From Leishmania martiniquensis (Eukaryota; Euglenozoa; Kinetoplastea; Trypanosomatida; Trypanosomatidae): a DNA stretch of 64,000 bases. Made by a program: the position numbers and the translations under genes. Shown in pieces: positions 10,500 through 47,422 of this stretch (the first letter of the stretch is position 1; each line of letters begins with the position of its first letter). The notes beneath the pieces were generated by a model that saw nothing but the letters and a program-made list of their open reading frames with translations, was not told where the DNA came from and searched no databases. Location of the stretch: NCBI RefSeq assembly GCF_017916325.1, contig NC_090165.1:682001-746000 (forward strand), read 5' to 3'.

Positions 10500-11702
10500 A
10501 TGGAGTTCCCTGTGTTTGTGGCCTCGGACGTACATGGAGAGAAGGTAAACCTCGCGCTTCGCTATAATCCACGCACCACCACGCTGGACTATTTCCTTCG
10601 GGCCGCGTCTCGCTGCTTCGATGACGTCTCGGACGTAATGCAGGAAGGCCTTCTTCTGCCCTTCTCTGCAGCGTACATCTACAGCGATGTCAGGTGTCAG
10701 TGGGACGTCCTGCAGGATCGTGCGCAGCTTTCGCCCTGCTGCCAGGTCTACGTTTTCCGTCAGCTGTACAAGGAGGCTGTGGCAGTGATTCCTGACCCTT
10801 TGGACTCCTCGGGGCTACTCGCGCTCCAGAGGGGAATGGCTGCGACGGCCTTTCGCGTAACAGGCACATCGTCTCTACCCCCACACTCCCCGGTGCACAC
10901 CCCCGCATCTACCTTGCCGCTGCGTCTTGCTAGCAACCATCAGGCACCTTCGCAAATCTCTCAACCGCCAGCAACGTTGAGGCCTCGCTTTGGGGTGCTG
11001 TCGCTGCGGGTGCCGTGCGAGGGCAGTGCTCCGCTGTTGCGTTTGGCTGATCGGAAGACGTCGGACAAGGCGACTCATACGAATACCGATGCGGGCGGCT
11101 TTCGTTATACGCGCTCGATCGTCGCGCCCATGGCATTCGGCCCCGTGCGGTCGCATCGCTTTCGGTTGCAGATCCTCTCCCCTGCGGTGGAGACGCGGAT
11201 AGATCGCCGAGAGGCAGCTTTCCCTCCAGCAAGCGCATCTGCGTCCTCGCCAGATTTGCCTGCATCTGCGCTGCAGGCTGTGCATAGCGAATCGGCACGG
11301 CGCTACTCGCTCGACGCGTACACTTCTCGCTCCGCGTCACTCCCCCGCACAGGAGAGGTGGCCATTCCGCGGAGATGGTACGACCCTTCTAGACGCTCTT
11401 GTCGCAGCGCTGCACCGCGGCCGCGCGGATCATGGCAGTGCTCACTGCCTTCCTCGCCTGTGTTGTGGGACAGCGGTCGGCCAAGGCCTTCGATACAGGC
11501 TGATGAATACGACCCGATGCTGTTCTCGCACACAGAACGACGCCGGGGGCACGGTATCAGCATTCTGCGCGAGGAGCGTGAGCGCGTCGCGGCGCAAACA
11601 TGCATGGGTGTAGATGAGCTGCGTTCATGTGTGCGGCAGGAGACTCAGCAACTGGCGCAGACTCTGAATGGGGCTCACTGCACCTTCACCCTTCGTCGCT
11701 GA
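10500..11702 (+). CDS. Protein with BILBO1-like N-terminal domain
   Basis: A 400-residue protein. Residues about 1-88 match the pattern of the BILBO1 N-terminal ubiquitin-like fold: an 'EKVNLAL' strand near 14-20, a helical segment, then 'WDVLQDRAQLSPCCQVYVF' near 68-86, comparable with the corresponding end of the BILBO1 domain. BILBO1 is the founding protein of the trypanosome flagellar pocket collar, and its N-terminal domain docks partner proteins. Residues about 105-345 are Ser/Pro/Arg-rich and probably disordered; about 350-395 form a short charged helix-rich end. It lacks the EF-hands and long coiled coil of BILBO1, so it is not BILBO1 itself. A role at the flagellar pocket or cytoskeleton is inference. 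Confidence 0.72.
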   Translation: MEFPVFVASDVHGEKVNLALRYNPRTTTLDYFLRAASRCFDDVSDVMQEGLLLPFSAAYIYSDVRCQWDVLQDRAQLSPCCQVYVFRQLYKEAVAVIPDPLDSSGLLALQRGMAATAFRVTGTSSLPPHSPVHTPASTLPLRLASNHQAPSQISQPPATLRPRFGVLSLRVPCEGSAPLLRLADRKTSDKATHTNTDAGGFRYTRSIVAPMAFGPVRSHRFRLQILSPAVETRIDRREAAFPPASASASSPDLPASALQAVHSESARRYSLDAYTSRSASLPRTGEVAIPRRWYDPSRRSCRSAAPRPRGSWQCSLPSSPVLWDSGRPRPSIQADEYDPMLFSHTERRRGHGISILREERERVAAQTCMGVDELRSCVRQETQQLAQTLNGAHCTFTLRR

Positions 11703-23025: not shown

Positions 23026-24006
23026 GGCGCGCTTGAGCCGAGGGATGAGCCATGGTCGTGGCCAAATGCGAGAGAGACACGTACACACACACACTTAAAC
23101 AAGCAGGCACAGAAGGGGGATGCTGGAGGGTGTGATTCGGAAGGAAACCGGATGATGCGAGTGCACCTAGCACCTTGAAAGGGACGGCCTGCGCGCATTC
23201 CCCACTGCTACTGTAGCGTTGGTTGCCGAACAGCGAAGGGGGTTCGTGAAGGGAGCAGAAAACAATGCTCGATGCGCGGCAGCTCTGCCTGGGTGCCCGA
23301 GTACGCGCCGTCACCCTATAGATCACAGCTGATCAGCGGTAGCGGACAGGGTGGACAGTGAGAAGAAAAGAGCATTGGCTGAAAGGGCTGGACACCCCCT
23401 ACTCCCTCAACGATTCGTCGCGCAAATCAATGGCCAGTAGCGCATGACGACAGATTTCAGTCGCTCTGCTGCCATTCTGTGTACCTTGCTTCCCTCTCCG
23501 GCTCAGCGGAACCGTGGTTTCGGTCCTTTCTGGCGCACCTCCGCGCCATATGTGTGGCGTGGCAGTCAAGGCGCTTGTCTCGCTCTCCCGCTCTTTGAGC
23601 AGCCTTCGCTTTAGCCCTCACCCTCTTCCTACGCATACCAACACTCCACGGCATGCCTGCATGCCCAGACATTTGTCGCTGTCTCTTCATCTCTCTTCGT
23701 CGCTTCTGTTCTTCATTTCATTGTGCTGCATCGCCTTTTTCTCTGTGTGTGTGAGCGATCTCGCACTGGGATAGGCGCCACATATGCGCTCCGCTGTAAC
23801 GTCAACACGTTGCTCACCTGCATGCTTCTTCGCTGTCACTGAGGCCCTTATTTCGTCGAGCGTTTAGCGTTTCACCTCTTCTCCCATCTCTCTCCCTTTA
23901 ACGCTCCTTTACACACAGTCACGTGTGTAGGGCGCACCTTTCTTGCAGCGCTACACGCATCAAGCGCTCCTGAGGTTTCCTCCAGGCGTGGGGAGAGGGG
24001 GGCACC
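23026..24006. other. Intergenic region
   Basis: 3' UTR of APC1 and leader of IFT20; pyrimidine-rich from about 23575 onward. No gene seen. Confidence 0.6.
23873..23918 (+). promoter_or_regulatory. Polypyrimidine tract and trans-splice acceptor of IFT20
   Basis: C/T tract at 23873-23910, then ACACACAG ending at AG 23917-23918, leaving a leader of about 88 nt before the ATG at 24007. Confidence 0.55.
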
Positions 24007-24396
24007 ATGGACGAGGATAGGCTCCTCATGTTCGATAGCCATGGCGCTATTCGAATGTACGATCCTGAGAAGTATGACGAGCTTGTGAGGACGGTGGAGG
24101 TGGAGCGGCGCTACGTGGAGAAGATGGACGAGTTCCGCGCGCTCGTCCAGCGCACCATGGCCATTGTGCAGAGCCTCGGCGAAGCAATCGAGGTGGAGAA
24201 GCTGAAGGCCATTGGTTTCCGAAACATCGTCGAAAGCGAGCCCGAGGAACGTTTTCGCGCGGTTCAGGAGGCCCAGATACGATTGCGCGAGAAGCAGATG
24301 GAGCTAGACCGCTACGTCGCGGAGTACGACTCCCTGAAGCTTGTAGAGCAGGAGCAGCAGACCTTCTTCCAGCATCTCAGCCAGGCCAAGGATTAA
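24007..24396 (+). CDS. IFT20: Intraflagellar transport protein 20
   Basis: IFT20 is the small coiled-coil subunit of IFT complex B. It pairs with IFT54 and links Golgi-derived membrane traffic to flagellum assembly. The 129-residue length is almost that of animal IFT20 (about 132). The family's hallmark central segment is visible at about 58-72 (an 'EVEKLKAIGFRN' run, compare 'ENEKMKAIGARN' in animals), followed by 'KQMELDRYVAEYDSL..VEQEQQ' at about 96-118, equivalent to the conserved '[22 protein letters not shown]'. Nearly all of the protein is predicted helix. The ATG has a good context and a nearby splice acceptor. Confidence 0.93.
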   Translation: MDEDRLLMFDSHGAIRMYDPEKYDELVRTVEVERRYVEKMDEFRALVQRTMAIVQSLGEAIEVEKLKAIGFRNIVESEPEERFRAVQEAQIRLREKQMELDRYVAEYDSLKLVEQEQQTFFQHLSQAKD

Positions 24397-26667: not shown

Positions 26668-29600
26668 ATGTCCGCGCCAGGGCTCAGCCACGGGGGACCA
26701 CGCCAGGGGCCTAGGCCACACCAGCGCCTGGCGCGACAGCGCCCCTGTGACGCAGCTTCGCTTTTGACGGACCGGCGTGTGCACGCGCCGCGCTACAGCT
26801 TTGACCCCGGCGCACTTCTGGCGCACTCCATTCAGGAGCAGGTGGACCGTTTTTATCGGGATCCGAAATTCGACACCGGGCCATGCCAACCGTCACTCAC
26901 TGCGTTTCGGCTCAACCGCAAAGGATGGCGGAGAGGCGACCCATTCGTACGCCGTAATTCACTGCGGCCAACCGCGGCAGAGTGGAGGCCGGCAGCACCG
27001 CGCCGCCAGTCTTCGATTCTCTCATCAGCACCGTCATCGTCTCAGTCTGCATATATTTTATCGTCACTGCCGGCCACGCAGCGGCAGCGCCTGCACCGGG
27101 TAGCTGCGGCCGCCACTCCGCGCCTGGCCTCCACTCTCGCTGCACCGTCAAAGTCGACGGCATGGAGTGAGCAGCGCCGCAAAGAGGGCATGGTCGAAAG
27201 TGGACTGGAGTCGGTGCAGAACCTCATTGGACTCGGCAGCTACTTCGCTCAGCACCTGGACGTTACGTACCGCTTGCTTTCTGTGAGTAGTGGTGGGGCA
27301 AGAGCCTCTGCTGCAGGCCCGTGCAGCGGTGAGCAGGTAAACGCCGCGGGTAGCCGCTGCGGTACTCGAGGGACGCCTCAGGTGCCTTACCCATTCAGTG
27401 CGCCGGTGCCCGGCTTCCCATACACCTCGAGCGTTCGCCGCCCTGAGGTCCCGTCTGGTGGTCACCCGAGCTCCACCGTGCGCGCGCGTTGTGCTCAGTC
27501 TCCTGGTCAATCAGAGCTGCTCCAATGCGCTGGCAGTCGTACGCAGGCAGCGCTCTACACTTGCGCAGTCAACGACACGGCATCACTGTCCAGTCCCGCA
27601 GCAGCTGATGCATATGGAGACGAGGTCTCACCGAGCGTCGGTGGCAGCGCATCCACCTTTTCCCTTGAAGGCAGGGACCTTCTCTTTGGCGAGGATCCAC
27701 TAGTGACGGAGCTGCTACAAGCACCAGAGACGGCGGCATGTACTGCGGAAACGCACAGAGGCGCCTACATGCAGGCAGCGCGAGGGCATGCGACGGCCTT
27801 CGAGCAGGCGGCATCGAACGCACGGGTCGTGCCTTCGCCGGCAGCGCTGGCAACGGCGAGCTTCTCCCGCTTCTCCTTCTCCTCCGCATACGACGCCCTG
27901 GTGCCGCGCGCATCGCAGTCATTGGCAAACCATGAGGCTGCCTTGAACTTGTGCGTCGGAGGTGTGGCATCGTCAGCGGATGCGAGGAAGCCTGCCGCGG
28001 CATTGGCGACAGAGTCACCTTGCACGAGAGAAACTATTGACCTCAAGCGATCGCGCGGTCTGTGGCGCCACTATCGCGCCGTGAACGACTTGTTTCAGCA
28101 GCTTCTGCGTCTTCGTGTCCACCATGAGCACGCGATGTGTCAGGGGCCTTGCCCGTGCGGTGTGTGCGACGATCGTTTCCTGGCGTCGCCGCCCCATGGA
28201 CCCCGAAGAGCTTCCAGCTCACGAGCAGGGCACCCCCTGTCTTCTGATAGAGTGGCGGCGAGGGTGCCCACGCACGACCGAGTTAGCCGTACAAATTCGA
28301 GTGGTAGGCGGCTACACGCCCGACCAGCCGTGGATCATTACCACGGTAGCGCACATTGCAACGATCACGGGCCATCTGCACCACCCCTCCGCTGCGACGT
28401 TCACCTTGGCAAACGAGGTGCGAATACTGACGCTCGTTTGCTTAGCGGACACTCGCGCTGCGATTCCTCGATATTACACGACGCGTTTGTGCCGACGCCG
28501 CCCCCAGCTCCACGCGATGGCGCCTCGTCGGCGCTGCGTCGGGGTCCTTTGCGGCCATCTTCAGCGGCGCAACCGCGAGAGCGCTCGTCGCGTACGTCCA
28601 AGTCATCTGCGGCACCCAGGGCGGCCCCACCATACTGCGTCCCGTATCGGGGCCGAGAGGCTGAGTATGGTCGGCCCTTCTCGTCTGCTACTGAGGGAAG
28701 AGCGGACGTCGGCCGGGAGAGGGGGAACGACGCTGGTGCACCGAGGGAGCGCGATGAGGATGCTCACGACGACCGCTCTCTCACTGAGCACCTGCGCGGT
28801 GTTGCGAGGGGCATTCGGGCGGGCAGAAAGGGATCGAGCACGTCATTCGTGAAGGATGCAGCCAGCGACCCCGATTCTGGCGCAGCGCATCTCAGCGCCG
28901 TTGCCTTGCCGGAAGCGTTGCGTGAGGAGGCGCACCCGGACGATGGAGCCTACTCGGAGTTGGTGCGCGTACCTAAAGCTGCTGGCCGCGCGATACCGGA
29001 GGCAATAGCCGTAGAAGAGACGGAAGCAGCGGCGGTGGCGCGCACAGCGATGATACCCTCCCAGGACATTCTGCAGCTTCCGCTTGCGCTGCAGCCGCCT
29101 CATGTCTTGGGGCGCAGCGGTGTGGCGGTGGAGACGGTGGCATCTTCAACCTCGCTGCATGAGCTGCGCGGGGATACCAATCCAGCGCTCCTTAGAACAC
29201 CCAGTGCGGCACTGCCTGCGAACGAAGACACTTTGCCGTGGGGACCTGCTGCTGTGCCTGAACCCCTCCCCACCAGCGAGACGGTGCCCAGTTCCTCATG
29301 CTCCTCGTCAGTTTCGAGCATTGCGCTGAGCAGTGACAGCAGCAGCAGTCTCGATTCCCCTGTTTTCGCGTTGCTTGGGGACACGAACGCCTCTGCGGCT
29401 GCGCCGGTAGCGGACTCACACCCCATCGCTGTCAAAACTCCTGCGCATTCGAACGTCACATTCGAGAGTGTCTTGCGCAGCACTGTTGTGAGGGTACAGC
29501 TGCGCGTGCTCAGCGAGCAAGAGGGTGCCCTGCGGGAGCGTCTCGGAGTCGATGAAGAGGACGCGCGGTGGGGGGTGTATTGCGAGAGAACGGTTGAGGG

Positions 29601-30402
29601 GGAAGCGCTGCGGCGCCGGGCACTCGCCTTGGAAGAAGCGGTGGAGAGGCGGGACCTCGCACGTCAGTGCGATTGGGTGCGTAGTCGCATTTTAGTCGCC
29701 GAGGACGCGCTGAAACAGTCGCAGGTGGCACGGAAGGAAGAGGACGACGCGTGGGAGTGCTCAGGAGAGGACGCGGGCCTGGCGGCGGTGGCGGTGGCGG
29801 CGAAGTCTGCGGTCACTGGGGCACTACAAGTAGGCATGGACAAACTTTCTACGGCGGAGGAGATGCTTCGTCGTGGCACTGTGATGAGGGAGCGTGCAGT
29901 ACGCCTGGATCTGCGGGTGAAAATGTGTCGTGATGTCGAGGTTTGTGCCAGGGGAGACCTTGAGTTTGCCGAGTGTTTTGGGCGGCTGGGCTTGACGCGG
30001 GCGTACGTAGTGTGCTGCCCGGCGCACACCAGAGCAATCAGTGATGCGGCGTCGACAAGAGTGGAAGAGGGTGCGGAGGGGGGTGGCATTGAGGGCCCGA
30101 CACCCGTTTCAGCCTCCGCTGGCGAGTCATCCGTGGCTCTACGAGCGCATACCCCGGCGCATGCCGGCATGGCTAGCGAGGCTGCTGAGCCAGTTGCGCC
30201 GCTTCCACCGTATAACCTGTACGTCAATGAGCACCTCGTCGATGCTTCAGCGCCGCCAGCTGACGTCGAAACCGTTTTTGGCGAGCACGCTCACGGCGAA
30301 GAGGGAATACCTCCGCGGCCGCACTTTGCTCTCCACGTCAGCGGCAGTACGTCCACGATCACGCCACCAAAGCTCATCTCGCCGTCTGTTTGTGCATCGT
30401 GA
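26668..30402 (+). CDS. Large hypothetical protein, possibly C-terminally truncated
   Basis: A 1,244-residue protein starting at the first ATG of a frame that is open further upstream only from a non-ATG codon. Most is Ser/Ala/Pro/Arg-rich and probably disordered. Ordered patches are about 60-100 (the 'ALLAHSIQEQVDRFYRDPKF' area, aromatic and charged), about 455-505 (WRHYRAVNDLFQQLLRLRVHH followed by a Cys cluster CQGPCPCGVC), and a helix-rich acidic/basic coiled-coil-like region at about 935-1,095. No enzyme motif or membrane segment; family not recognised. Immediately after the TGA at 30400-30402 the same frame stays open for 67 more codons, and coding-like sequence continues in shifted frames to 31510. 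The annotated C-terminus may therefore be a recent truncation. A second open frame overlaps it at 28124-28852. Confidence 0.7.
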   Translation: MSAPGLSHGGPRQGPRPHQRLARQRPCDAASLLTDRRVHAPRYSFDPGALLAHSIQEQVDRFYRDPKFDTGPCQPSLTAFRLNRKGWRRGDPFVRRNSLRPTAAEWRPAAPRRQSSILSSAPSSSQSAYILSSLPATQRQRLHRVAAAATPRLASTLAAPSKSTAWSEQRRKEGMVESGLESVQNLIGLGSYFAQHLDVTYRLLSVSSGGARASAAGPCSGEQVNAAGSRCGTRGTPQVPYPFSAPVPGFPYTSSVRRPEVPSGGHPSSTVRARCAQSPGQSELLQCAGSRTQAALYTCAVNDTASLSSPAAADAYGDEVSPSVGGSASTFSLEGRDLLFGEDPLVTELLQAPETAACTAETHRGAYMQAARGHATAFEQAASNARVVPSPAALATASFSRFSFSSAYDALVPRASQSLANHEAALNLCVGGVASSADARKPAAALATESPCTRETIDLKRSRGLWRHYRAVNDLFQQLLRLRVHHEHAMCQGPCPCGVCDDRFLASPPHGPRRASSSRAGHPLSSDRVAARVPTHDRVSRTNSSGRRLHARPAVDHYHGSAHCNDHGPSAPPLRCDVHLGKRGANTDARLLSGHSRCDSSILHDAFVPTPPPAPRDGASSALRRGPLRPSSAAQPRERSSRTSKSSAAPRAAPPYCVPYRGREAEYGRPFSSATEGRADVGRERGNDAGAPRERDEDAHDDRSLTEHLRGVARGIRAGRKGSSTSFVKDAASDPDSGAAHLSAVALPEALREEAHPDDGAYSELVRVPKAAGRAIPEAIAVEETEAAAVARTAMIPSQDILQLPLALQPPHVLGRSGVAVETVASSTSLHELRGDTNPALLRTPSAALPANEDTLPWGPAAVPEPLPTSETVPSSSCSSSVSSIALSSDSSSSLDSPVFALLGDTNASAAAPVADSHPIAVKTPAHSNVTFESVLRSTVVRVQLRVLSEQEGALRERLGVDEEDARWGVYCERTVEGEALRRRALALEEAVERRDLARQCDWVRSRILVAEDALKQSQVARKEEDDAWECSGEDAGLAAVAVAAKSAVTGALQVGMDKLSTAEEMLRRGTVMRERAVRLDLRVKMCRDVEVCARGDLEFAECFGRLGLTRAYVVCCPAHTRAISDAASTRVEEGAEGGGIEGPTPVSASAGESSVALRAHTPAHAGMASEAAEPVAPLPPYNLYVNEHLVDASAPPADVETVFGEHAHGEEGIPPRPHFALHVSGSTSTITPPKLISPSVCAS

Positions 30403-31510
30403 GCGCGACCAGAGCGGCTCTTCGCCGATGCCAGTGAGGCAACCGAACTGCATAAATCGTCAGCGAGGCGCAAGCCACAGACCTGTGCGCGGCGCAGGGA
30501 TGCGGTGCCGATGGTGCCAGAGGATTTGAAAGGCGTCCTTTTTTTCGCGGAGGCTGGGCGAGGGGCAGCTCCGCAGTGGCCACCGCTTCACAAGCAGACG
30601 TGGTGAGATTGCCGATAGAGGCTTCTCTTCAGCTGCGAAAGCACTTCGACTGTTGCGTAGTGTGGTGTGCAGCCCCATTCTACGGCACTTGACCCACTGC
30701 CTTACTCTGTGCTGAGCACGCATGAAGTGCCGACGCCTGTGGTGAAGCTTTCCCCCCTTTTGAAGCCGGCAGAGGCGGTGTGAGTAGCTTCCGCTGAACA
30801 CGCGGCTAAGAAAGCCTCCGCTGGGTGAGGGTCCTACGGCTGAAGCGCGGACGGAACTGCATGGCACAGCCACCCCTTCCCTCCCCCCGGCGGCTCTTGA
30901 TGCCACTCAGATGCCATTTCCCCCCCTCGCGGTTACCTGACGGTGCCGCTACAGAGACCCTCCCTTCTGCGTACTCTCAGACGAGGGCGCTCTAGGCCGC
31001 TTCCTCTTCTGGCAAACTCCGCGAACGGAGCTGCCGTTCCTTCTCTGGGGCACTTCCGCAGAGCACGAGCAGACTCTTGGTACGGTGGTGGACGTCGCAG
31101 TGAGGCAGAAGTTGCAGAGGAAGTCTGCCGCCGCTGCGGCGGACGCGGAGGGGTCTCTGATGCTTTATCGGCTCTCCTGGCGAAGTAGAAAGTGGTGCGT
31201 CCTTGAGGGAATCGCCATGCATTTCACGTCCTTGAAGATGGCAAAGCGCGCCTGAGACTCGTTGCCCTTACTGCTCTGGGAGCAGACCACTACCACTGCC
31301 GCCGTCGTGGTATTTCAGGCGGAGCATTCGGTCGAGGAGCTGACCTCTAGCATGCGCTTACGGAGCGTCCTGCGCCCGGCTCAGCGTGTTCAGAAGCTAG
31401 CCCCGGAAATAGCGGCCGGCTCACCGCTGTGGCATAAAGGTATCGGTTCGTCTCTGCCTCCTGGGAGAGGGTGCGCGGGGCGTCGACAGCAGTGCTCCGT
31501 AATATTCTAG
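30403..31510 (+). pseudogene. Decayed coding sequence with a PH-like domain remnant
   Basis: No intact ORF, but coding-like translation runs through the region with frame changes. (1) 30403-30603 continues the upstream gene's frame. (2) About 30576-30684 reads well in a second frame up to a TGA. (3) About 30685-30780 returns to the first frame. (4) 30788-31510 lies in a third frame, interrupted only by TGA at 30938-30940 and 31253-31255 and ended by TAG at 31508-31510. In part 4 third codon positions are mostly G or C, as in real genes here. The stretch 31150-31375 resembles a pleckstrin-homology domain: 'RKWCVLEG.AMHFTSL' before the in-frame TGA, and 'VVVFQAEHSVEEL' plus a helix after it. 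No usable ATG begins part 4. It is either a pseudogene or the broken C-terminal end of the preceding gene; sequencing error is possible. Confidence 0.6.
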
Positions 31511-33380
31511 CGGACCAAACATTCGAGTCCCATCTCCATATCCGAAGGCGCCGCAGCGCAGCGGCGGGCTCACAGCCCCTCCCACTCGCCTAGTTGCGCT
31601 CGCCCCACCCGAGGCGACGAAAATGGCAGGCGATGAGCGGCACGCAAACCGAACGAGTCGAGGGAAGTGAGGAATGCTTCGGAGACATCCCTGCCTTTGT
31701 ATGGACGCAGCCGAGCGCTGCTCCGTCGTGCTGGCTCAGGGCACTGTGCACCCACATCGACGGAAAAGCCGAAGTCAAATGCATGACGCTCAGGTAGCTC
31801 CAGGCCGGGCCTCTTCTTCCCCCCTTAGGGGGGTTGGCGTTGGCGACCATCAGAGGGGCAAGAGGGAGCGCTTGTCTTGATAGCAACCCTCTGCTCTCTT
31901 CCTTGCACAACGTCTGCTGCCGCATTCCCGTGTCGCACCGGCAGCGTGCGTCAGCGCTGGCATCGATTCCTCTCCATCCGAGGTAAGGGGTGCGTGGCTG
32001 CTGCACGTGCTTGGTGGATGGGTTCTTGGGATAGGGAAACGTTTCCATGACCCGAACGTGTCTGTGTTTGTGTCTCTTTCCCTTTTATTATTTCTCTCTG
32101 CTGCTGCCGCGGCCTGCTGATCCATCGCGTATCCTGACAAGAAGGCGCTCCTTTCGCTTCTCTTTACGTTGTCTCATCCTGTCCCTCCCCTCATTCCTCT
32201 CTTTTCTCCCCCTCGCTACCCGTAGGTGGAGCGAACCATAGACAGCCCGTTGTCTGACGCCTTCGACACTCGTGTTGCCGTTCCTCTTTGTATTCCTGTG
32301 CGTTCCCCCCTTGTCCGTTTTTGTGGTCTCTGTCGCCGACCCCTTGGGGCCCTCCCTCGCCCCTCTCTTTATTTCTCTCTATCCTTTTTTGCGATGTCTT
32401 TTGCGGGTGGCGCCGCCTCTCCATCATCGCTCGTCGCGTTCGCGTTATTGTCCGTTTCCTCTGAGACCCGCTTTGCCAAAGTGCCGCCTGCTCGATGTAC
32501 ACGTATGCGCGTTTCCGCCGCACCACACTCCCTTCCTCCCATTGATGGAGTGTCTGCGCCACTTCCAGCCTTGTGCGTGTCCACGTGCTTCTGTCTCCCT
32601 TTCGTTTTTTTTTCTCTCTCTGTTTTTTTTTGTTTCCGGCCTTCAGTGTCGCGGTCTGCGCTCGTATAGATGTCTCCGTGTGTACGTTTGTTAGGTAGTG
32701 AGGGGTGAGGTTCCCCCTCCCCCCTTCCCCTGGCAGAGCCCTGAGACGGTGAAGGGTGTGGCTATGGTGTATCTATGATGGCCTTGCGCAGCCTCTGCGG
32801 GAGAGCACGCACACGCAGAACCACGCAGAGAGGCTCGCTGCCACCAGGAGCCCAGCATCGTCCACCACCATGTAGAAATTCTCAGTAGGAAAGAAGAAGA
32901 AAAAAGGGGACAGCGAAGTCCCCGCGTCGCCTACGGGCCACAGTTTGCATGCCAGCAACAAAAAAGGATTGTCATAAGTTGCTATGCACCATCGGTCACC
33001 GATTTGTGTGACCGCATCGTACTGCACACGGCGCTTCTGACTCTCCGCTGCAAGGCGACGTCAGGAAAGCAAAAATAAATGAAGATCGCTTGACCCCAGC
33101 TGGCGTGCAGAAAATGCATCATGTATGCGCAGGATTTGCGTGCATGGCTGATGAACCACGACTCCACGTCTACTGAATTGCTCAGGCGCGCCTTTCCGGA
33201 AGAGACGCCTTCGCCATCTTTTCTGCCGCCCTGCGAGACTATGAGCTCATGCTGCCTGCCGAGCTGCTTGCCGCGCGACTTCATCTCGAAATGTTTCCCC
33301 TTCTCTCCGTCGGCGCACATCTGCTTGTGTGCGGGGCCATGTGGCACCCCTTATTAGGGATGCGCCGTGCGTGTGACGAT

Positions 33381-33473
33381 TGGCAAGCGCTCTTTTGTGT
33401 TCGGCTCCCTCTCTCACTCCCTCCATCTCTCTCGTTCTGTGTCTGGAAGAGCCCAACACAAAAGAGCGCTTGC
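33381..33473. repeat. 27-bp inverted repeat with pyrimidine-rich loop
   Basis: Arm 33381-33407 and arm 33447-33473 are reverse complements except for one C/C mismatch (33402/33452). The outer 21 nt (starting TGGCAAGCGC) and inner 5 nt pair perfectly. The 39-nt spacer is mostly C/T. Transcribed rightward it forms a long stable stem-loop about 1.1 kb upstream of GPI14. Confidence 0.9.
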
Positions 33474-34520
33474 CACGAGGGTACCGGGGACGTAGAAGGC
33501 TCGAAGCACGACAAGAAAAAGGGAGTGGCGTGGAGGAGAGGGGGGAAAGCGGGGCAGATTGCACGACAGCTTGTTTGCTTTTCTGCTCCGTCGGCCCCTT
33601 TTCTTCGGTCGTTGCCGCCCGCTCCTCCGCGCTCGACTCGCTTGCCCTCCTTGCCCATCCCCGACTCGAGGCGTAGGGCCTCACGTGTCTCGCCACTACT
33701 CTTGTATTTCACATCCGGTATCTACGCCCCCTCTTCGTCACTCGCTGCGCCGGTCTCTCCTTCTCCCACGGCCCCCTCTTCTCGATCTGACGTGGTGCTC
33801 CACTTTTTTCCCCTTGATTTCTTCAATTTGCGTCAGCCGCATCACCATTGGGTACCACCCTCCCCCATATCGGCTCCTTTTTCTGCGGGTGTGTCTCGAC
33901 GTATTGCGCGGGCTCCGTCCATCACGTGCCACGGAGAGAGAAGCACTTCCCCCCCCTCTGCCATCAGCACACAAAGCCAAGCGATCGCCACACCTGCGCT
34001 ACGGGAGCTCCCTCTACTCTCTTCCTCGTTGTGAGTCCCTCACCCACACACATTGGAAGATTCTGAGCTGTCGTCGCATCCACCTTCACTGTAGGGGTGC
34101 ACGACACCCCTCCCTCCCTCCCTCCCCCCACAAGAAACAAACGTTGCTGAGATTCCCTTTGCCCACATCTCTCTATCTCTCTCCATGTCCCGCATTGCGC
34201 TGTTCATCGGATGAGTGCGCCTTTTCCCCTTGCGTGGACGATTGATGCTCGCTGCTCTGCGCCGTGTTTCGCCTTCCGTCCCTTTTTGTATATAATTTCT
34301 TTCTACTCCGTATCGCCGCCCTTTTTCTTCGCCTGTTCGCGGCCATCTCGGACAGTGCACGCGCCACCTCCCCTCCCCTCCCCTTGGTACCAGCAGGCAC
34401 GCGAACCGAGCCGCTGAGGGCCGGGAGCGCGCATGCACAACCTCTTACGCCATTCCCATCGATCTCTCTCTCTCTGGGGCTTCTTTTTTTTATTTTCCTT
34501 CGGGATCTGGCCATCTATCT

Positions 34521-34553
34521 GGTCCTCCTTCCCCTCTTCTCCGCATTGCCCAG
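34521..34553 (+). promoter_or_regulatory. Polypyrimidine tract and trans-splice acceptor of GPI14
   Basis: C/T-rich tract at 34521-34549, then GCCCAG with AG at 34552-34553, 56 nt before the ATG at 34610. Further CT and T runs at 34455-34500 strengthen the signal. Confidence 0.55.
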
Positions 34554-34609
34554 ACGCCCTCTTCCCCTTTCCATAAACGCACCTGTCATACTCGCGCTCA
34601 CTTCACACC

Positions 34610-35908
34610 ATGAAGAACGTAACGTGGATGGACCGACAGAGCATTCGCGCACTTCTCCTCTACGGAGGGCTCGTGCGGCTCGTGCTGCTTATTTACGCCG
34701 GTTTTCATGACTGCCATTTTCGAGTCAAATATACAGATATCGACTACACGATCGTGGTGGATGGCGCAAGGGAGGTACTAAATGGTGGAACACCGTTTGA
34801 TCGCACGACGTACCGGTACACGCCGCTCCTCGCTGTGCTGGTACTCCCTGCCGTGCTCATCGCACACCCGCTGGGGAAGGTCCTCTTCACGCTGAGCGAC
34901 CTTGGCGCAGCTTACTACTGCTTTCGCATTCTCCTGCGCTTTTCGACGGAGCGGAGTGCGAAGTGGATGGTGGCAATCTTTATCCTCTGGAACCCTGTTG
35001 TGCTGAACGTGTCGACGCGTGGGAACAGCGACATGCTCATCTGTTTCCTGAGCATGGGGGTGCTGGCAAAGTTTGTCGAGGGCCGCTATTTCGTGGCCGC
35101 CGCAATCCTCGGCTTTGCAGTACACGTCAAGATCTACCCAGTCATCTATGCTCTTCCCCTGGTGCTCGGCGTGTGGGAGGGCGCGAAGTCTTGTCGCTTC
35201 TGGAGTCGTCTCGCCCACACCGCCCATGTGGTGGTCGGCTGTGGCTTCTGGTTCACGGCCGCCTTCGCTGTCCCGACGTATGCGTGCTACGTGGTTTATG
35301 GCCAGCAGTACCTTGACGAGGCCTTCCTCTACCACATCCACCGCGAGGACCACCGACACAACTTCTCTCCTTACTGGCTGCTCATGTATCTGAACATGGG
35401 CCGCCGCAACCTTGGCGTCGGCAGGGATCACTCCGCTGGGCTGTTCGCTTTTCTCCCGCAGCTCGCCGTGTTGGGCTACGCTTCGTGGAAGCTGCGTACG
35501 AACGTTGCGCACGCCTTCTGCATTGAGACGATCCTCTTTGTGGCATTTAACAAGGTCTGCACGGTGCAGTACTTTGTGTGGTTCCTCCCCTTCCTGGGGT
35601 TCGTCTTCTGCGAGCCGGCGCCGCGAACACGGCTGGCGCGTACCCCCGTCTCCCCCAAGCCAAAGGGGCTCCCGCTCCTCTGGTCCGTTGCCCCCGTACT
35701 CCTTTGGAGCCTCACCATTCCGCTGTGGGTGTGCGCAGCCTATCCGCTCGAGTTTGGGGGAGAGAACCACTACGGCCGCCTGTGGATCGTATCCTGCCTC
35801 TTCTACCTGGCCACTGTGGGCCTCGCCGCATGGCTAGGGCGGCTGTGCTGCCGAAACAGCATGAGCTTTGCCATGAAGGATGTCAGCTTGGCGCGCAAGG
35901 CGTTTTAG
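34610..35908 (+). CDS. GPI14: GPI mannosyltransferase I (PIG-M / GPI14)
   Basis: Adds the first alpha-1,4 mannose to GlcN-PI in GPI-anchor synthesis, in the ER lumen with dolichol-phosphate-mannose as donor. In trypanosomatids this pathway feeds the anchors of abundant surface proteins and glycolipids. The 432-residue length matches PIG-M (about 420). The family signature is clear near the N-terminus: 'YTDIDY' with the catalytic DxD as D43-I44-D45, then 'DGAREVLNGGTPFDRTTYRYTP' at about 51-72. Many hydrophobic helices follow (for example about 75-90, 190-230, 330-350, 365-405). 'GNSDML' near 143 and 'HFKVYP'-like 'HVKIYPVIYALP' near 171-182 are also typical. Start fixed by the splice acceptor at 34552-34553. 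Confidence 0.92.
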   Translation: MKNVTWMDRQSIRALLLYGGLVRLVLLIYAGFHDCHFRVKYTDIDYTIVVDGAREVLNGGTPFDRTTYRYTPLLAVLVLPAVLIAHPLGKVLFTLSDLGAAYYCFRILLRFSTERSAKWMVAIFILWNPVVLNVSTRGNSDMLICFLSMGVLAKFVEGRYFVAAAILGFAVHVKIYPVIYALPLVLGVWEGAKSCRFWSRLAHTAHVVVGCGFWFTAAFAVPTYACYVVYGQQYLDEAFLYHIHREDHRHNFSPYWLLMYLNMGRRNLGVGRDHSAGLFAFLPQLAVLGYASWKLRTNVAHAFCIETILFVAFNKVCTVQYFVWFLPFLGFVFCEPAPRTRLARTPVSPKPKGLPLLWSVAPVLLWSLTIPLWVCAAYPLEFGGENHYGRLWIVSCLFYLATVGLAAWLGRLCCRNSMSFAMKDVSLARKAF

Positions 35909-38124
35909 CTGCTTAGCAGCGCCTCTTATTGTTCACGCTGGTCCTGCTCTCACGCGGTGGAGGTGGTGGGCTATGCAGAGCACGGCGGCGGTGCACACCA
36001 GATTTCACGCTGGCGGTGCGCTGTGCGTGTGTACATGGGGGTGGGGTGGGTGGGTGGAGGGAAAGCTGCGCGAGGGCATGAAACTATCGTTGCCCTGTCA
36101 CACAGTCCTTCCTCTCTTTATCCAGCTCGTCCGGTAGGGCGGCGCATGCCCTTCGATAGTACGTCGGCGGAACTGCTTGCCTCGCATGAAGGCGGTGATG
36201 AGGGGTGAAAAGGGTTTCGACGAGAGAGAGTTTTGCATGCATAGAGCAGCGCGAGAAATGGGGCAGAGGCAGGGGGACGGGGCAGAGGCCGAGGGATGCA
36301 AAAGTAGCTAACATCGAATCCTTCGTGGGCCTCGGCGGCCCGCGCCGCTGCGCAACCCCTTATTCCCTGTCTCCCTCGCTTCACCCTTCTCTTTCTCTCT
36401 CCCTCTGCTGCTTGTTTTTTTTGCTGTGCGGCGAGATGCTGCGCAGCGCCCAAACCAGCCGGAGAGTCGGGGAAGCTGCAGCCGTGCGTACAGAAGCAGC
36501 AGCAGCAGCTCTGTGCGTTTTTTGAGCGCGAGAGAGCGAAATGAGATCTCGTGCATCTGGCTGCGCTCGCCATCATACTGTATCAAATAGGAGTGACGGT
36601 CATAGCTGGATGGCGCTGAGTAGCGACGTCGGTCTTGACTACGCCGTCGCCTGCATCAACACGCCTTACGGGTACTTGAATCGGGATGCGTCGCGTGCGA
36701 ATCACCCTCTTGCCGGACTCCCTCTCCTCCGCCTTTGCGGTGAGCTGTTCCTTGGGCTTCCTTGCTCCACATGCGCCTTCCTTCCCTGTCCACGCATCAG
36801 CGCACATCTTCGCTCCCTTTCTTGGCCCCGTTCCGCGCACGCAGACACTCTTAGACTCACCAGCGTACGAGGGCCTTTTTATTATTATTCTGTCCTATCG
36901 TCCTTCGCCGTGCGAATGAAGTGGTCCTCACCTCTCCGCCACAGGCACACGCACACACACGCACCCTTTTCTGTTCTCCGTTCTCTTTACTGCTCTTTGC
37001 AGCATGCGAAAGACGGGGAGGCCCAAGCCGTGTGCCGCCTCTCCCCCCCTCAGTGCCTCCCTGCACACTCGCAGCTGCCCTCACATAGGACATGGGTGCA
37101 CCTGCACGCACACTGTCTGACACCCCGACAAGAGACCAGCGGTATTCCCGTTTGTGTCTTCTCCCTCCATGTGGCCCCTTTCTTTTTAAAACTACTCCCC
37201 AATGCTCAATGACGAAGGGAGGAGGAGGTGGCGGATACTCACGTAACGTGCGTGACATTGCCCGGGAGGTGGGTCCCGCGACCACCTCCCTCTCGCTCTC
37301 CGTGCGGTGAATTCAGGCACTCCCCTCATGCGGTCTGCCAATGCTGATTCACCTCTGGCCGTGACACAGGGTCCAGTGCCTGCGGCGCACCACGCGCTCG
37401 GTAATGTGGTGGGGCCGGGGGGGCGAGTAGCGCGGAGCTCAGCGCATGCGTGTGTGCTGCATGGCGAAGGAAGAGGTAAGTTCACTGGCGATTCTTCGCT
37501 GGTGTCATTGTCTTTGCTTCTGCGCGGTTCTTGCATCTGATATTCTCCATGAGTATTCAAAAGTGAGGCTGCCATCTTGTCGAGGGTGTTGGCGGGGCTG
37601 AGAGGGCTTCTCTTACCCGTGTGAGTGGAGGGTTGCAGCACAATGTTGATCCCCATGGCTTCCTGCCAATGTCGCTTTTTTTTGTGTCTGCGACTGTGCC
37701 GATCGCATCGATGTGACTCGAAGGAATCCGTGAAGTGAACCTTCTGCCTTTGCGCGTGTCGGTGTGCGCGCGGGGCTGCATCCTGGTCGAGGCGACGCAC
37801 GCAAGCCAACAACACCAGCATTGCATCTTTGTATCATCCTCAGAAGCTCACGTATGACGCCGACGCGGCTCTTTGACATGCATCTATGTGGTCTTTGCGC
37901 TGATGGTGCGCCTCGCCTCTCTTTCGTGTGCTCAGGCGCGCGCTGCGCTCTATCCGCTTTTCCACGGTGCCGCTTTTCGCTTCATGATCGCCTTTCTCTA
38001 CGCACATGCGTGCCACACGCCTAATGCAACGCAGAGCGCGCGAAGGTCATCATCGGTGTCGCTTCTTTGCCGCCTTCACGAAGCGCTTTCTCTTCATCCG
38101 CGTGTCTTTCTGCCCACGCTGAAG
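35909..38124. other. Long intergenic region (about 2.2 kb)
   Basis: 3' UTR of GPI14 and leader of the calpain-like gene. Pyrimidine-rich stretches lie at about 36355-36420 and 36720-36790. A 223-codon ORF at 36541-37212 begins plausibly but becomes pyrimidine-tract translation and is not supported. No gene called. Confidence 0.5.
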
Positions 38125-42192: not shown

Positions 42193-44060
42193 GTATCGAG
42201 GCCGCCTCGTCTCTCCTCCCTGCCCCTGCTCCCTACGCACCCAGACGTATACATATACGGGTAAGCTGGAGAGGACAGCTCCACCACTCGAAGTGCCATA
42301 CAAGCGCACACCTGCAGAGCCATTGCGGCTCATTTCTTTTTCGACCTCTTTGCGCGCTCGTCTGTTACAACGCGGTAAGCGCTTCCATGAAAATACACGC
42401 CGACACATACGCACGCACGCGGGTACGTGGCGCACCCTCGTAGCCTTCATGCAGCGCCTACGCGCTCTCTATTCTGCGCCTCTTGTGCGCGCACGTGCGT
42501 GTGTGTGGCGGTGGCGGAGACAATGATGTACGCTGATGTGTAAGTGTGCTGTGTTTCGTTTTCTGACTCAACGCGTTGGTCCTCAAAGGCATCTTCGATG
42601 CCTACGAAAAACCTATCGCACACTCATCTGAAAAGTGTAGAGGCGACGGCGGAGCGACAGGGCGAAAAGGCTGTGCTCGGGGCGACGAGAGATACGAATG
42701 AGGTGGATGAGGGTGAGGCGTGCGCACATGCGTCATTGAGCCGCTGCGTTCATGCTCTGTTGGATGCAGAAGCGTCAGCTGCTGTGCGCTCCACTGGCCA
42801 TGTCGCCCTCCTGCTCTGACGTGGGGCTTCTTTCACCAACCTCACTCTCTTCGCCCTGTGCGTCTGTGCACCCACGCACCCTTCCCCGAGAACCTGCTCC
42901 GCCGCTACTGAGGAATTCGTGAGGGGCACCGTTTCTATTCTTCTGTCTCTCTTTGTGTGATTGCTTCTTCTCGCTTGCTTGGAACCCAGTCGAATGCTGC
43001 TCACCATCCCTCACCTCTGGCTTGCCGGTTGGATGGCCGTGGTGGAACTATTCACTGAAAGGCTCGGCGACAGGGGGAGAGAGAGGGGTGGGAGAGCGGA
43101 GGAGGCGAGGCAACAGATGTACCCTCCCCCTCTCTTTTTTTTCTGGCTGCTCATCTCTCCTTTTCCCTGTCCCATCTTTGCTGTTCAATACATGTATGCT
43201 CACGGCCTGTATCCACTCGTGCGCCCTCTTCCCCCTGTCTGTCTGTCTCTCTCTCTCTCGGTCATTCTCGATCACTTCCCCAACTCTGTGCACCAGTGCT
43301 TTGCGCCACGGTGGTACACGAAGGCGGTTGGGAAGAAGAGGTGTCGACCAAAGTGGCTTCGTTTTTTTTCGCGCTCTTCCGCGCCTCTGTATGGGCGGTG
43401 ACGGCTCTCTTTCTCTCTGCGTCGTTTCCTCACGCTTTGGAATCGTTCCCCCCTCTGTGATTTCGCCCCCGACGCTGTATGATTGCTGCGGCAAAGTCAT
43501 CTCAAAATTCTTCAGAGAGAGATCGTGCCATCTCAGGATTGCTGTTTGTGGACTTGATCAAGGAGTACACATGCTTACTGCGACTCCGATGTTTCTTTTC
43601 ACGCGCGGCGACCGTTGCTGCTCCTCGTCCTGCCACATTTGTTGCACCACTTGCACTGGAGCGAGCGCCTCCATCATACAAGTTGATGTCGCGTCACCCC
43701 TGCCCTCCCCAGCCCGCCATCCCTTTGCAACACATGTAAGGGTTTCTCACCTCCTTTTTTCATCTCGCATGTGTCCACCTGTTCCTCTCTCCGTCGTATA
43801 TCCGTCCTTCGCCGGCCAAACGTACGTCTACATGTGCGCTGGCCATGGCCGACTCCACGTGCCGCCTTCAGGTCGCCCCCCTCCCCCTCTCGCAAAATTT
43901 GTTCGCATATTTTTGGTCCGACGACAGAGTTCTCACCCGACCCCCCGCCCGCATAAGCCCAACACAGCCGCTCTTTTGATGATGAGCTGAAGCGTCATTG
44001 TGCGCATTACGTCGCCCAACCGCTTTTTTTTCTGCCGTTGAATATTTGCCCCTTTTCCAC
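42193..44060. other. Long intergenic region (about 1.9 kb)
   Basis: Pyrimidine-rich and GT/CT-repeat sequence (for example 43115-43160, 43225-43270, 43750-43800). A long frame at 42953-43990 has no credible start and is Ser/Leu/Cys/Phe-rich because of CT tracts. No gene called. The last T tract (about 44022-44058) has no AG before the b561 ATG, so the acceptor probably lies upstream, for example near 43868. Confidence 0.55.
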
Positions 44061-44771: not shown

Positions 44772-47422
44772 AAAGCTGTGGGAACCTCCTCCCACGTGTT
44801 CGACACCAGCACGTAGTCGAAGAGGCCCGCTACCGAGGCTGGGAACGTAGAGCCACCTGTGACGGTGCGCTCCATCATCAATGCTACGAGCATCGGCATC
44901 ATCAATGCACACCATCTCGCGTAGTTTTGTACCACCTGGCCTGTGACTGAGGTAGCCAGAGCAACGGGGCGCGCGATTCGAAAGAAGTGCGGCTGGGTAT
45001 ACTACGAGGCATGAAGATGAGAATCCGGTGCCACAGACAACGCACGGCTGATGAAAGCCGAGCGCGGGTAAGCGGCGTCGTGGGCGGTGAAGAGGAGGAG
45101 GACGTCTTTCTGCGTCGTAGAGCTCCACAGGAACACTTCGTGAAGAAAGGTGTGCGGTGGTGGTGGACGTCTTTGCCACTCATCCGCGCTGTGCCTGTAT
45201 ACAGTGAATGTTTGAGACACGGAATGCCGCGAGAAAGGACAAAGGAGCTGCTCAATGTACCTATCTCATCCAGTGAATCTGATCGAGCTAGGTATACGCA
45301 GCGCATTGAACGTTGCAGGCGGCCCCCATCGGCTTCGTCCCGGCATAGCTTATGTGGGCGACTAGGGTCGCATGGACGCGGCGAAAAGGTCTGTAGAAGA
45401 GGAGGCCTTTCTCAGGGACCGATACGAGTCAGCGTGGCGGCGCCCGCTGACGATGCAGCGGCGGTGCTGTCGGCACCCCACCAAAGCAAGCAGGCGTTAG
45501 AGATGGACGTCGACATTTCCTAATCTGTGGGCTGGATGTCCCCGGCAGTGCTGGTGTGTGAGGCGTAGCGGTTCAGCTCCTTGCAGTACTCGGCATCCCG
45601 CAGCCTTCAGGGCGTCGATTTTGTCAGGAAGCGCTCATGCAGCTCGTACGACGGTGGCCTGGTGGAATGGAGTCGAGTAACCTGTCCAGAAAGTAGGCTC
45701 TGCCAGTCGCGCTATCGTCTCGCTATGGCTGGGCGCCTCCCAAGGCGTTCAGCCCCCCTCCTCCTTCCCCCTCTGCAGGCGGCGGGGGTGCTGAGCAGCC
45801 CTCGAAAATGGAAGGTACGGCTAGCACTGACAGCAGTGGCTACCGGCCTGCTTTCGCTATGTGCCCCAGTTCTGGTGTTACTGGGCGCTCTCGGTGCCTT
45901 TGCGCGACAAGTTCTTTGGGGTCTTTTCCCTTTTGTTTTCCTCCGTTAAGCCGGCATCTGCTCCCGCACATGAAGGCAACTGTGGAAAGAGGTGCGTGAT
46001 GCACAGTGACGCGCACACGTTAATACACATATACGGACTGTTGCTGCGCGTCGAGCGACTTTTTTAGCCGGGAAACGGCCCGAAATCACTTCTGCAGGCA
46101 TCTCCGGCGGCCTTGACAAGGCAGACGACCCATCAGCGGCTCCACTCCTTCTGCCTTTCTCTTGACACTTCTGTGCCTCTACGTCTTCTCAGTGTGAGCA
46201 GCTGTGAACGACACTGAATGCATTCCGCCTTCTGTGACTCAGGAGGGGTATTACTGTGGATGTGCCCGTGAGAGCCATCACGGTGGGACAGAGTACCACT
46301 TCGCTAGCGATGCTGCTGCATGTATTCGATCCGGCCCTCCGCATTGCTTTCACCACACCGTGCCCGCCTTTACCATTGACTCCCTCCTCCTGGCCCTCCT
46401 TCTTCTCTAACGCATGCACATATGCACCCGATCACGCACTCATGTCTGCCGATGAAAGCACATCACCAGAGGCGGAAGCTCAACTGCGCGCTACCAGACC
46501 TTCACTTGCTCTCTCTCAGTCCCTTTTTCGCCATCTGTCCCACCTCCTCCGTCTCCCCCCTGGTTGCAGGCACACTGGTACCGTCTCGCCGTGGTGCACA
46601 TTCGATGGCAAGCATCGGAGACGGCAGCGGAAGGGCGCGGCGGTAGAAAAAAAAGTTCCGGAGAGCACCCGCAGCGGGAAGGGTGGAGGCGCGTCGGTGC
46701 CTTTTGTTCCCGGACTCAAGAACGGCCCCACTGCACACCGAAGACAGAGAAAAGGCACTCGTGGGGGATATGCGCCCCTCGTGTTGCCTTTTTGCGTCTT
46801 CCGTGGCCACTTGCTGTCTTCTTTTTTTTTAAGTCTTTGACGTTCTGGTGTGAATTTTATTGTACCCTTTTTTCTCTCACCTGTGCGTGTGCGTGTGTGT
46901 GTAGTGGTCGGGGTTGGTAGCAAGGGGCACCGGCGGGGCTCTTGTCCTTTCCATCTCGATAGGCGGAGTTCTAGTACCAAGCGGAGGTGCTACCTTCACC
47001 TTCCCTGCACTGCCCTTTGGCGGTGTCGAGAAGGAGGGGGGAGGGGCAAGCACAAGTTGAGGGGGGGAGACGCTGCCGTGGACTGCGTCAGTCTCGTGTA
47101 CCGTTCACGGGCATTTCTCGCTTCCAGCAAACAAGTGAAGTCCTCCGTTTTACCGGGTGGCTTCGTTTCTGAGGTGACGGGACGGGAAAGGGGGCCCATA
47201 TCCCTCTTTTTCGCCCCACACACCGGCGGTGCAAGGCGCGAGAGGGACGGCCACAATCATCCGTCTCGACGTTCTCCTGCCCCCCTCCCCCCTCCCAGCG
47301 CACCATCGCTTTCGTGCGGCAGGACCAGCCGCGGATCTCTCGTTCGGCGGTTTCCACCGCGCTCGTTGCGCGCGCTGCTCGAGCGCCCTTGGGTATCCCC
47401 ACACCGCCCTCTCCCACCACGG
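44772..47422. other. Long intergenic region (about 2.65 kb) with possible gene remnants
   Basis: 44772-45950 lacks the usual pyrimidine tracts and translates into protein-like fragments in more than one frame on both strands, including an ORF from the ATG at 45011 to 45523 (170 codons) with only moderate GC at third positions. I could not assemble a convincing gene and call none. From about 46380 it becomes leader-like, with a T tract at about 46811-46830 followed by AG near 46831-46832, and C-rich tracts at 47277-47300, before the next gene. Confidence 0.45.

What the first reader, a model, noticed from the sequence alone, without database searches (positions are those of the whole stretch)
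30403..31510. Decaying gene with a PH-like domain, broken by in-frame TGA codons
About 1.1 kb directly after the 1,244-residue hypothetical gene translates into protein-like sequence, but in shifting frames. The best part (30788-31510) is a single frame with only two internal TGAs (30938-30940, 31253-31255) and G/C-biased third positions. Around the second TGA the halves fit a pleckstrin-homology domain: RKWCVLEG before, FQAEHSVEEL after. This suggests a recently lost phosphoinositide- or protein-binding module, or an unusual recoded gene.
Basis: partly seen in the sequence, partly recalled or inferred. Interest (0 to 1): 0.75.

Follow-up and report, generated by a model that had tools for sequence, protein, structure and literature searches.

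The report
Decayed tail of a Leishmania gene
Just after a 1,244-residue gene of unknown function in a Leishmania chromosome lies about 1 kb that still carries traces of the codon habits of a protein but is broken by stop codons and a frame change, most likely the eroded end of that gene, which is an ordinary way in which Leishmania species come to differ.

Summary
The codon signal is real: 1 of 1000 dinucleotide shuffles reaches it on the sense strand; the antisense strand and two stretches downstream are unremarkable. Its core is 30980-31429, one frame, across the second TGA. Ties to the 1,244-aa gene: codon signal continues in the gene's own frame past its stop (3rd of 65), pyrimidine density between them is coding-like, and no second copy was found. 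The genome is most likely L. (Mundinia) martiniquensis. Best reading: a degraded C-terminal end, now 3'UTR. The pleckstrin-homology claim fails: no Pfam match, and a profile of this genome's 11 PH matches gives 0.3 bits against 18.5-70.7 for each left out. Recoding would need TGA read-through plus one frame change and a TAG, or two frame changes. Against: a gene-finding HMM does not call the region coding, Markov scores outside the core are weak, and no relative was found, so decay is inferred. Such decay is documented for Leishmania (PMC2696322).

The parts
26668..30402 (+). Intact ORF of 1,244 aa (hypothetical, mostly low-complexity, charged helical-looking stretch at residues about 930-1110); stop TGA 30400-30402
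   Evidence: ORF; coding score positive, 0.047-0.055 bits/base, slightly below the lowest of six other clearly coding window genes scored with each model (0.054-0.155); no Pfam family; no homologue found; helical look judged by eye, the fold was not returned
30403..30603 (+). 67 codons in the gene's own frame after its stop, still coding-like
   Evidence: frame-0 codon score 7.9 bits over 201 nt, 3rd of 65 ORFs' downstream stretches; 0.055 bits/base with the order-2 model, only 0.021 with orders 3 and 4
30661..30780 (+). Further stretch in the gene's frame between stops, weak coding signal
   Evidence: codon profile 30640-30790; 0.005-0.026 bits/base
30788..31507 (+). Frame +1 relative to the gene: 240 codons broken by TGA 30938-30940 and TGA 31253-31255, closed by TAG 31508-31510
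30980..31429 (+). Core of the codon signal, one frame, spans the second TGA
31511..34609 (+). 3'UTR/intergenic stretch up to the PIG-M gene; pyrimidine-rich parts begin between 31.5 and 32 kb; pyrimidine runs of 18 or more at 32194, 32711, 34107, 34367 and 34523. The 261-aa ORF at 33249 lies in it but scores as non-coding

Best explanation
30403-31510 is the degraded 3' end of the gene whose intact part is now 26668-30402. The ancestral gene ran on for roughly 340-370 codons past the present stop, to about 31430-31510. A new stop at 30400 ended the reading frame, constraint on the rest was lost, and further stops and at least one frame change collected there; it is now transcribed, if at all, as 3'UTR of the shortened gene. 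Shown here: codon signal in the gene's frame and then in the next frame; stops and a change of best frame; coding-like pyrimidine density; no second copy found. Inferred: that it was one gene, the order of events, and that it is UTR today. The lost part's fold is unknown.
For: Codon signal 1/1000 against dinucleotide shuffles, sense strand only. Codon signal runs from the gene in its own frame past the stop (3rd of 65), then in the next frame. Maximum pyrimidine fraction per 40 nt in 30403-31500 is 0.70-0.75, as inside coding DNA (median 0.725 of 47 ORFs) and below the 5th percentile (0.79) of 800-nt stretches upstream of 56 ORFs, so no obvious trans-splicing signal starts a second gene there. 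No second copy of the DNA or of the two pieces 30941-31252 and 31256-31507 in the genome search. PMC2696322 (passages read) states that degeneration of existing genes, with in-frame stops and frame shifts, accounts for about 80% of species differences in Leishmania.
Against: No intact relative was found: the two protein searches with the 1,244-aa gene gave only itself, so the longer ancestral protein is hypothetical. A Viterbi gene model does not call the tail coding. 30782-31429 scored whole gives 1.0, -9.7 and -2.6 bits, and 30403-30603 only about 4 bits with orders 3 and 4. Four and two other stretches score higher under orders 3 and 4, the IFT20 gap among them each time. The longest pyrimidine run in 30403-31500 is 14-16, above the 75th percentile inside ORFs (12) and close to the lower quartile of upstream stretches (14.75), so by that measure the region is intermediate.
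Confidence: 0.57

Rival explanations
1. Ordinary long 3'UTR whose base composition happens to imitate codon usage; no ancestral coding.
For: Viterbi model calls it non-coding; near-zero Markov totals over the wider stretch and some other gaps with higher scores; no homologue and no domain.
Against: 1 of 1000 dinucleotide shuffles reaches the score and the antisense strand does not stand out; pyrimidine density is coding-like and changes near 31.5-32 kb. Of the four stretches other than the IFT20 gap that outscore it under order 3 or 4, three have no stops and may be small unlisted genes (not checked); the fourth, 44772-46309, has two stops.
Confidence: 0.22
2. Remnant of a separate small gene downstream of the 1,244-aa gene, not of its end.
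For: The strongest signal (30980-31429) is in another frame from the gene; the longest pyrimidine run, 14-16, is intermediate.
Against: Pyrimidine density between 30403 and 31500 is below the 5th percentile of that upstream of 56 ORFs; codon signal continues in the gene's own frame right after its stop. A vanished gene could have lost its acceptor too.
Confidence: 0.13
3. Assembly or strain error: the gene is longer and intact in the living organism.
For: If the assembly is LSCM1 it is Nanopore-based, polished with short reads (PMC8210701, part 1 of 2 of the text read); homopolymer runs occur in the region (sequence).
Against: Homopolymer length errors do not create several separate in-frame stops; the paper gives 278x coverage and short-read polishing.
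Confidence: 0.05
4. Recoded gene: TGA read through (selenocysteine or tryptophan) with programmed frameshifting to give a C-terminally extended protein.
For: Both stops within 30788-31507 are TGA, as is the gene's own stop.
Against: One frame change is not enough without passing a TAG (30616 and 30658 in frame 0, or 30785 in frame 1); avoiding TAG and TAA needs two frame changes. No SECIS or other Rfam match in 30000-34700; TGA ends 8 of 16 window ORFs counted.
Confidence: 0.03

Closest known systems
Degenerate genes (pseudogenes) of Leishmania species, e.g. PFPI-like genes broken in some species (PMC2696322, passages)
   Same: In-frame stops and frame changes in sequence with coding-type codon use; no second copy found.
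   Different: Here only the 3' part is broken and no intact orthologue was found with these tools.
Pleckstrin-homology domain (Pfam PF00169)
   Different: No profile support; scores at the level of shuffled sequence.
SIDER/DIRE retroposon remnants of Leishmania (recalled, not from a call)
   Same: Recalled as lying often in 3'UTRs or as decayed coding sequence.
   Different: No second copy by DNA or by the two protein pieces searched genome-wide; only weak chance-level matches in 264 kb; no Pfam match of any piece.

Membership tests
Degenerate gene end (pseudogene) | Codon signature of protein-coding DNA beyond chance | tested here: met
   1 of 1000 dinucleotide shuffles; ranks; but one search does not call it coding and the signal is confined mainly to 30980-31429
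Degenerate gene end (pseudogene) | Reading frame broken by stops and frame changes | tested here: met
   stop lists per frame; best frame changes between about 30600 and 30790
Degenerate gene end (pseudogene) | Intact orthologue at the syntenic place in relatives | tested here: inconclusive
   protein searches limited to 684-2177 aa and about 8000 candidates found only the query; the DNA collections offered hold prokaryotes, viruses, plasmids and metagenomes, and none was searched for a relative
Pleckstrin-homology domain PF00169 | Profile match above cut-off | tested here: not met
Pleckstrin-homology domain PF00169 | Seven-strand barrel with C-terminal helix | tested here: inconclusive
   single-sequence model mean pLDDT 34.8, uninformative
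Selenoprotein / recoded UGA | SECIS element in 3'UTR | tested here: not met
   no Rfam family at gathering threshold in 30000-34700
Dispersed retroposon remnant (SIDER/DIRE) | Further copies in the genome | tested here: not met
   own-genome search with the DNA (it skips very common words) and with 2 of the tail's pieces (one weak match, E 0.53); blastn of 30403-33248 and tblastn of 8 pieces against 264 kb gave nothing better than E 0.18 and E 0.043 beyond itself

The most novel reading that the evidence does not exclude
The tail is still translated at low level, by read-through plus frameshifting, giving a rare C-terminally extended form of the 1,244-aa protein.
Probability: 0.03. Interest if true: 0.6.

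Novelty: new member of a known kind. Interest (0 to 1): 0.17.

Why it matters
It is one more likely case of Leishmania gene content changing by decay in place, here apparently of a gene's end rather than a whole gene. It also warns that the 1,244-aa protein may be a shortened form of a longer one in relatives, so domain searches and orthologue tables built on it may mislead.

Tried and rejected
PH domain: Pfam pieces, whole-genome PF00169 scan and an own-genome PH profile give no support. One search was a faulty first version (minus-strand loci not reversed) and is not used.

Paralogue or multi-copy element: none found (for the tail, for the gene, in 264 kb). One weak match of 31256-31507 on C34 (34% identity, E 0.53) is taken as chance.

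Homologues: two searches with the 1,244-aa protein, whole at E<=0.001 and residues 925-1120 at E<=10, found only the query itself. The same database holds proteins of L. enriettii, L. braziliensis, L. tarentolae, Porcisia and others (control with the PIG-M neighbour, best other identity 83%). Both searches scored only about 8000 candidates and only lengths 684-2177, so a fast-evolving or longer orthologue would be missed. No search of that kind remained for the tail itself.

Solved structures: nothing for 30941-31252, one chance match at E 0.46 for 31256-31507, nothing at E<=1 for the gene. RNA families: none. Fold of the tail: uninformative, so no fold search was run. A fold of residues 925-1244 had not finished after seven collecting calls and is not used.

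Literature by guessed identifiers for L. major, L. mexicana, L. infantum, L. braziliensis and L. donovani: no paper in the held library. T. brucei identifiers gave three papers, of which passages of two were read. Searches are search listings; from them passages of PMC12153298, PMC8591177, PMC8421402 and PMC2696322 and part 1 of PMC8210701 were seen; PMC12153298 and PMC8421402 are not relied on.

Full report
Where it is. The window is G000:C30:682001-746000 of an assembly of 32.3 Mb in 41 contigs. Its PIG-M gene (34610-35908) is nearest to L. enriettii (83%) and L. braziliensis (81%) among other sequences. Size and contig number come close to L. (Mundinia) martiniquensis LSCM1 (32.41 Mb, 42 scaffolds; PMC8210701, part 1 of 2 of its text read). 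That identity is therefore likely, not proven.

Neighbourhood. The gene before the 1,244-aa ORF is IFT20 at 24007-24396 (Pfam IFT20, E 6.7e-36), too short for the 200-aa ORF list. The next gene after it with clear coding signal is PIG-M; the 261-aa ORF at 33249 scores as non-coding (-0.054 to -0.065 bits/base). In T. brucei IFT20 is Tb927.6.3290 (PMC1857822, passages) and PIG-M is Tb927.6.3300 (PMC8591177, one passage). Consecutive numbers suggest that no gene of this kind lies between them there; this is an inference from numbering only.

The observation. The open stretch and both TGAs are exactly as given. Codon tables were trained on ORFs of at least 300 aa among 93 picked in a separate 200 kb of the same chromosome. 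With them the best segment in 30403-31510 reaches 27.1 bits against intergenic codons (30980-31429) and 35.0 bits against off-frame codons (30812-31429), and 1 of 1000 dinucleotide shuffles equals each. Controls in the same call: antisense 656 and 127 of 1000; 31511-32600 527 and 161; five other gap stretches between 17 and 971, the lowest being 42193-43195 (78 and 17); IFT20 0 of 300 twice. Among 70 gaps of at least 400 bases it ranks 2nd against intergenic codons (29.3 and 26.1 bits under two stop penalties) and 4th and 3rd against off-frame codons. With Markov models trained on ORFs of at least 250 aa (46 of them) it ranks 2nd, 5th and 3rd of 64 stretches for orders 2, 3 and 4; the 64 are 52 training gaps and 12 window stretches that I chose.

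Results against it. In one search the wider stretch 30782-31429, scored whole with stops at full cost, gives 1.0, -9.7 and -2.6 bits, so the signal sits mainly in 30980-31429 (22.2, 14.2, 21.4 bits). A Viterbi segmentation that charges for stops and state changes calls only the gene, up to 30388, and nothing after it, while it places IFT20 at 24003-24392 nearly exactly. The signal is thus real but weaker than that of an intact gene.

Link to the gene. After the stop at 30400-30402 the gene's own frame stays open for 67 codons. That length is unremarkable (17th of 65), but its codon score, 7.9 bits over 201 nt, is 3rd of 65 (ORFs of at least 250 aa with 600 nt of flank, not filtered for overlap with a following gene). 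The best frame then changes somewhere between about 30600 and 30790. The maximum pyrimidine fraction per 40 nt is 0.70-0.75 in 30403-31500, as inside ORFs (median 0.725 of 47), and below the 5th percentile (0.79) of stretches upstream of 56 ORFs; it rises to 0.93 in 31511-32310. By the longest unbroken pyrimidine run (14-16) the region is intermediate: 75th percentile inside ORFs 12, lower quartile upstream 14.75. On balance the tail looks like coding DNA that belonged to the gene before it, and intergenic DNA starts about 31.5-32 kb.

The PH claim. None of 9 pieces, nor the X-marked read, has a Pfam match at E<=10. The PF00169 scan finds 11 places in this genome, 10 over the cut-off, none in the window. 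A profile from those 11 recovers each left-out member at 18.5-70.7 bits but gives the tail 0.3 bits, below the best of 300 shuffled versions (3.0 bits). The single-sequence fold is uninformative (mean pLDDT 34.8).

What could not be shown. No homologue of the gene was found in two searches, although the database holds proteins of other Leishmania. Words from a low-complexity, possibly fast-changing protein, a cap of about 8000 candidates and the length limits make this a weak negative. Hence the longer ancestral protein, the time of the break and the function of the lost part remain inferred or unknown.

Comparison with the known. PMC2696322 (passages) reports that degeneration of existing genes, with in-frame stops and frame shifts, makes up about 80% of species differences in Leishmania, and lists 97, 41 and 161 pseudogenes for L. 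major, L. infantum and L. braziliensis. This tail fits that kind. Nothing in it calls for a new mechanism; recoding would have to combine TGA read-through with one frame change and passage of a TAG, or with two frame changes (stop lists).

Verdict. A real, ordinary feature: most likely the eroded C-terminal end of a hypothetical gene. Low interest; the missing comparison is a plain syntenic alignment.

Noticed in passing
24007-24396 +: IFT20 (129 aa) lies between the 2,141-aa and the 1,244-aa genes (Pfam E 6.7e-36).
   Followed up: yes
26668-30402 +: The 1,244-aa gene has coding-like codon usage but no detected homologue, even though the same database holds proteins of other Leishmania: fast-evolving, differently long in relatives, or lineage-specific.
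   Followed up: partly
33249-34034 + and 36541-37212 +: These ORFs (261 and 223 aa) score as non-coding by Markov models and are probably not genes.
   Followed up: partly
45428-45682 +: Another coding-like stretch with two in-frame stops, downstream of the cytochrome b561-like gene (22-24 bits), but for its gap 59 and 142 of 1000 shuffles reach the codon score.
   Followed up: partly
G000:C30:520566-520805 (in L018): A 1,058-aa ORF (C30:517389-520565) whose own frame goes on with the highest codon score of 65 after its stop, with a second stop 4 codons on (15.7 bits): a possible second shortened gene.
   Followed up: no
10500-11702 +: BILBO1 N-terminal domain protein (400 aa, Pfam E 5.3e-36), possibly the BILBO2 counterpart: T. 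brucei BILBO2 (271 aa) is Tb927.6.3240 (PMC8360560, passages), near IFT20 there too by numbering.
   Followed up: partly
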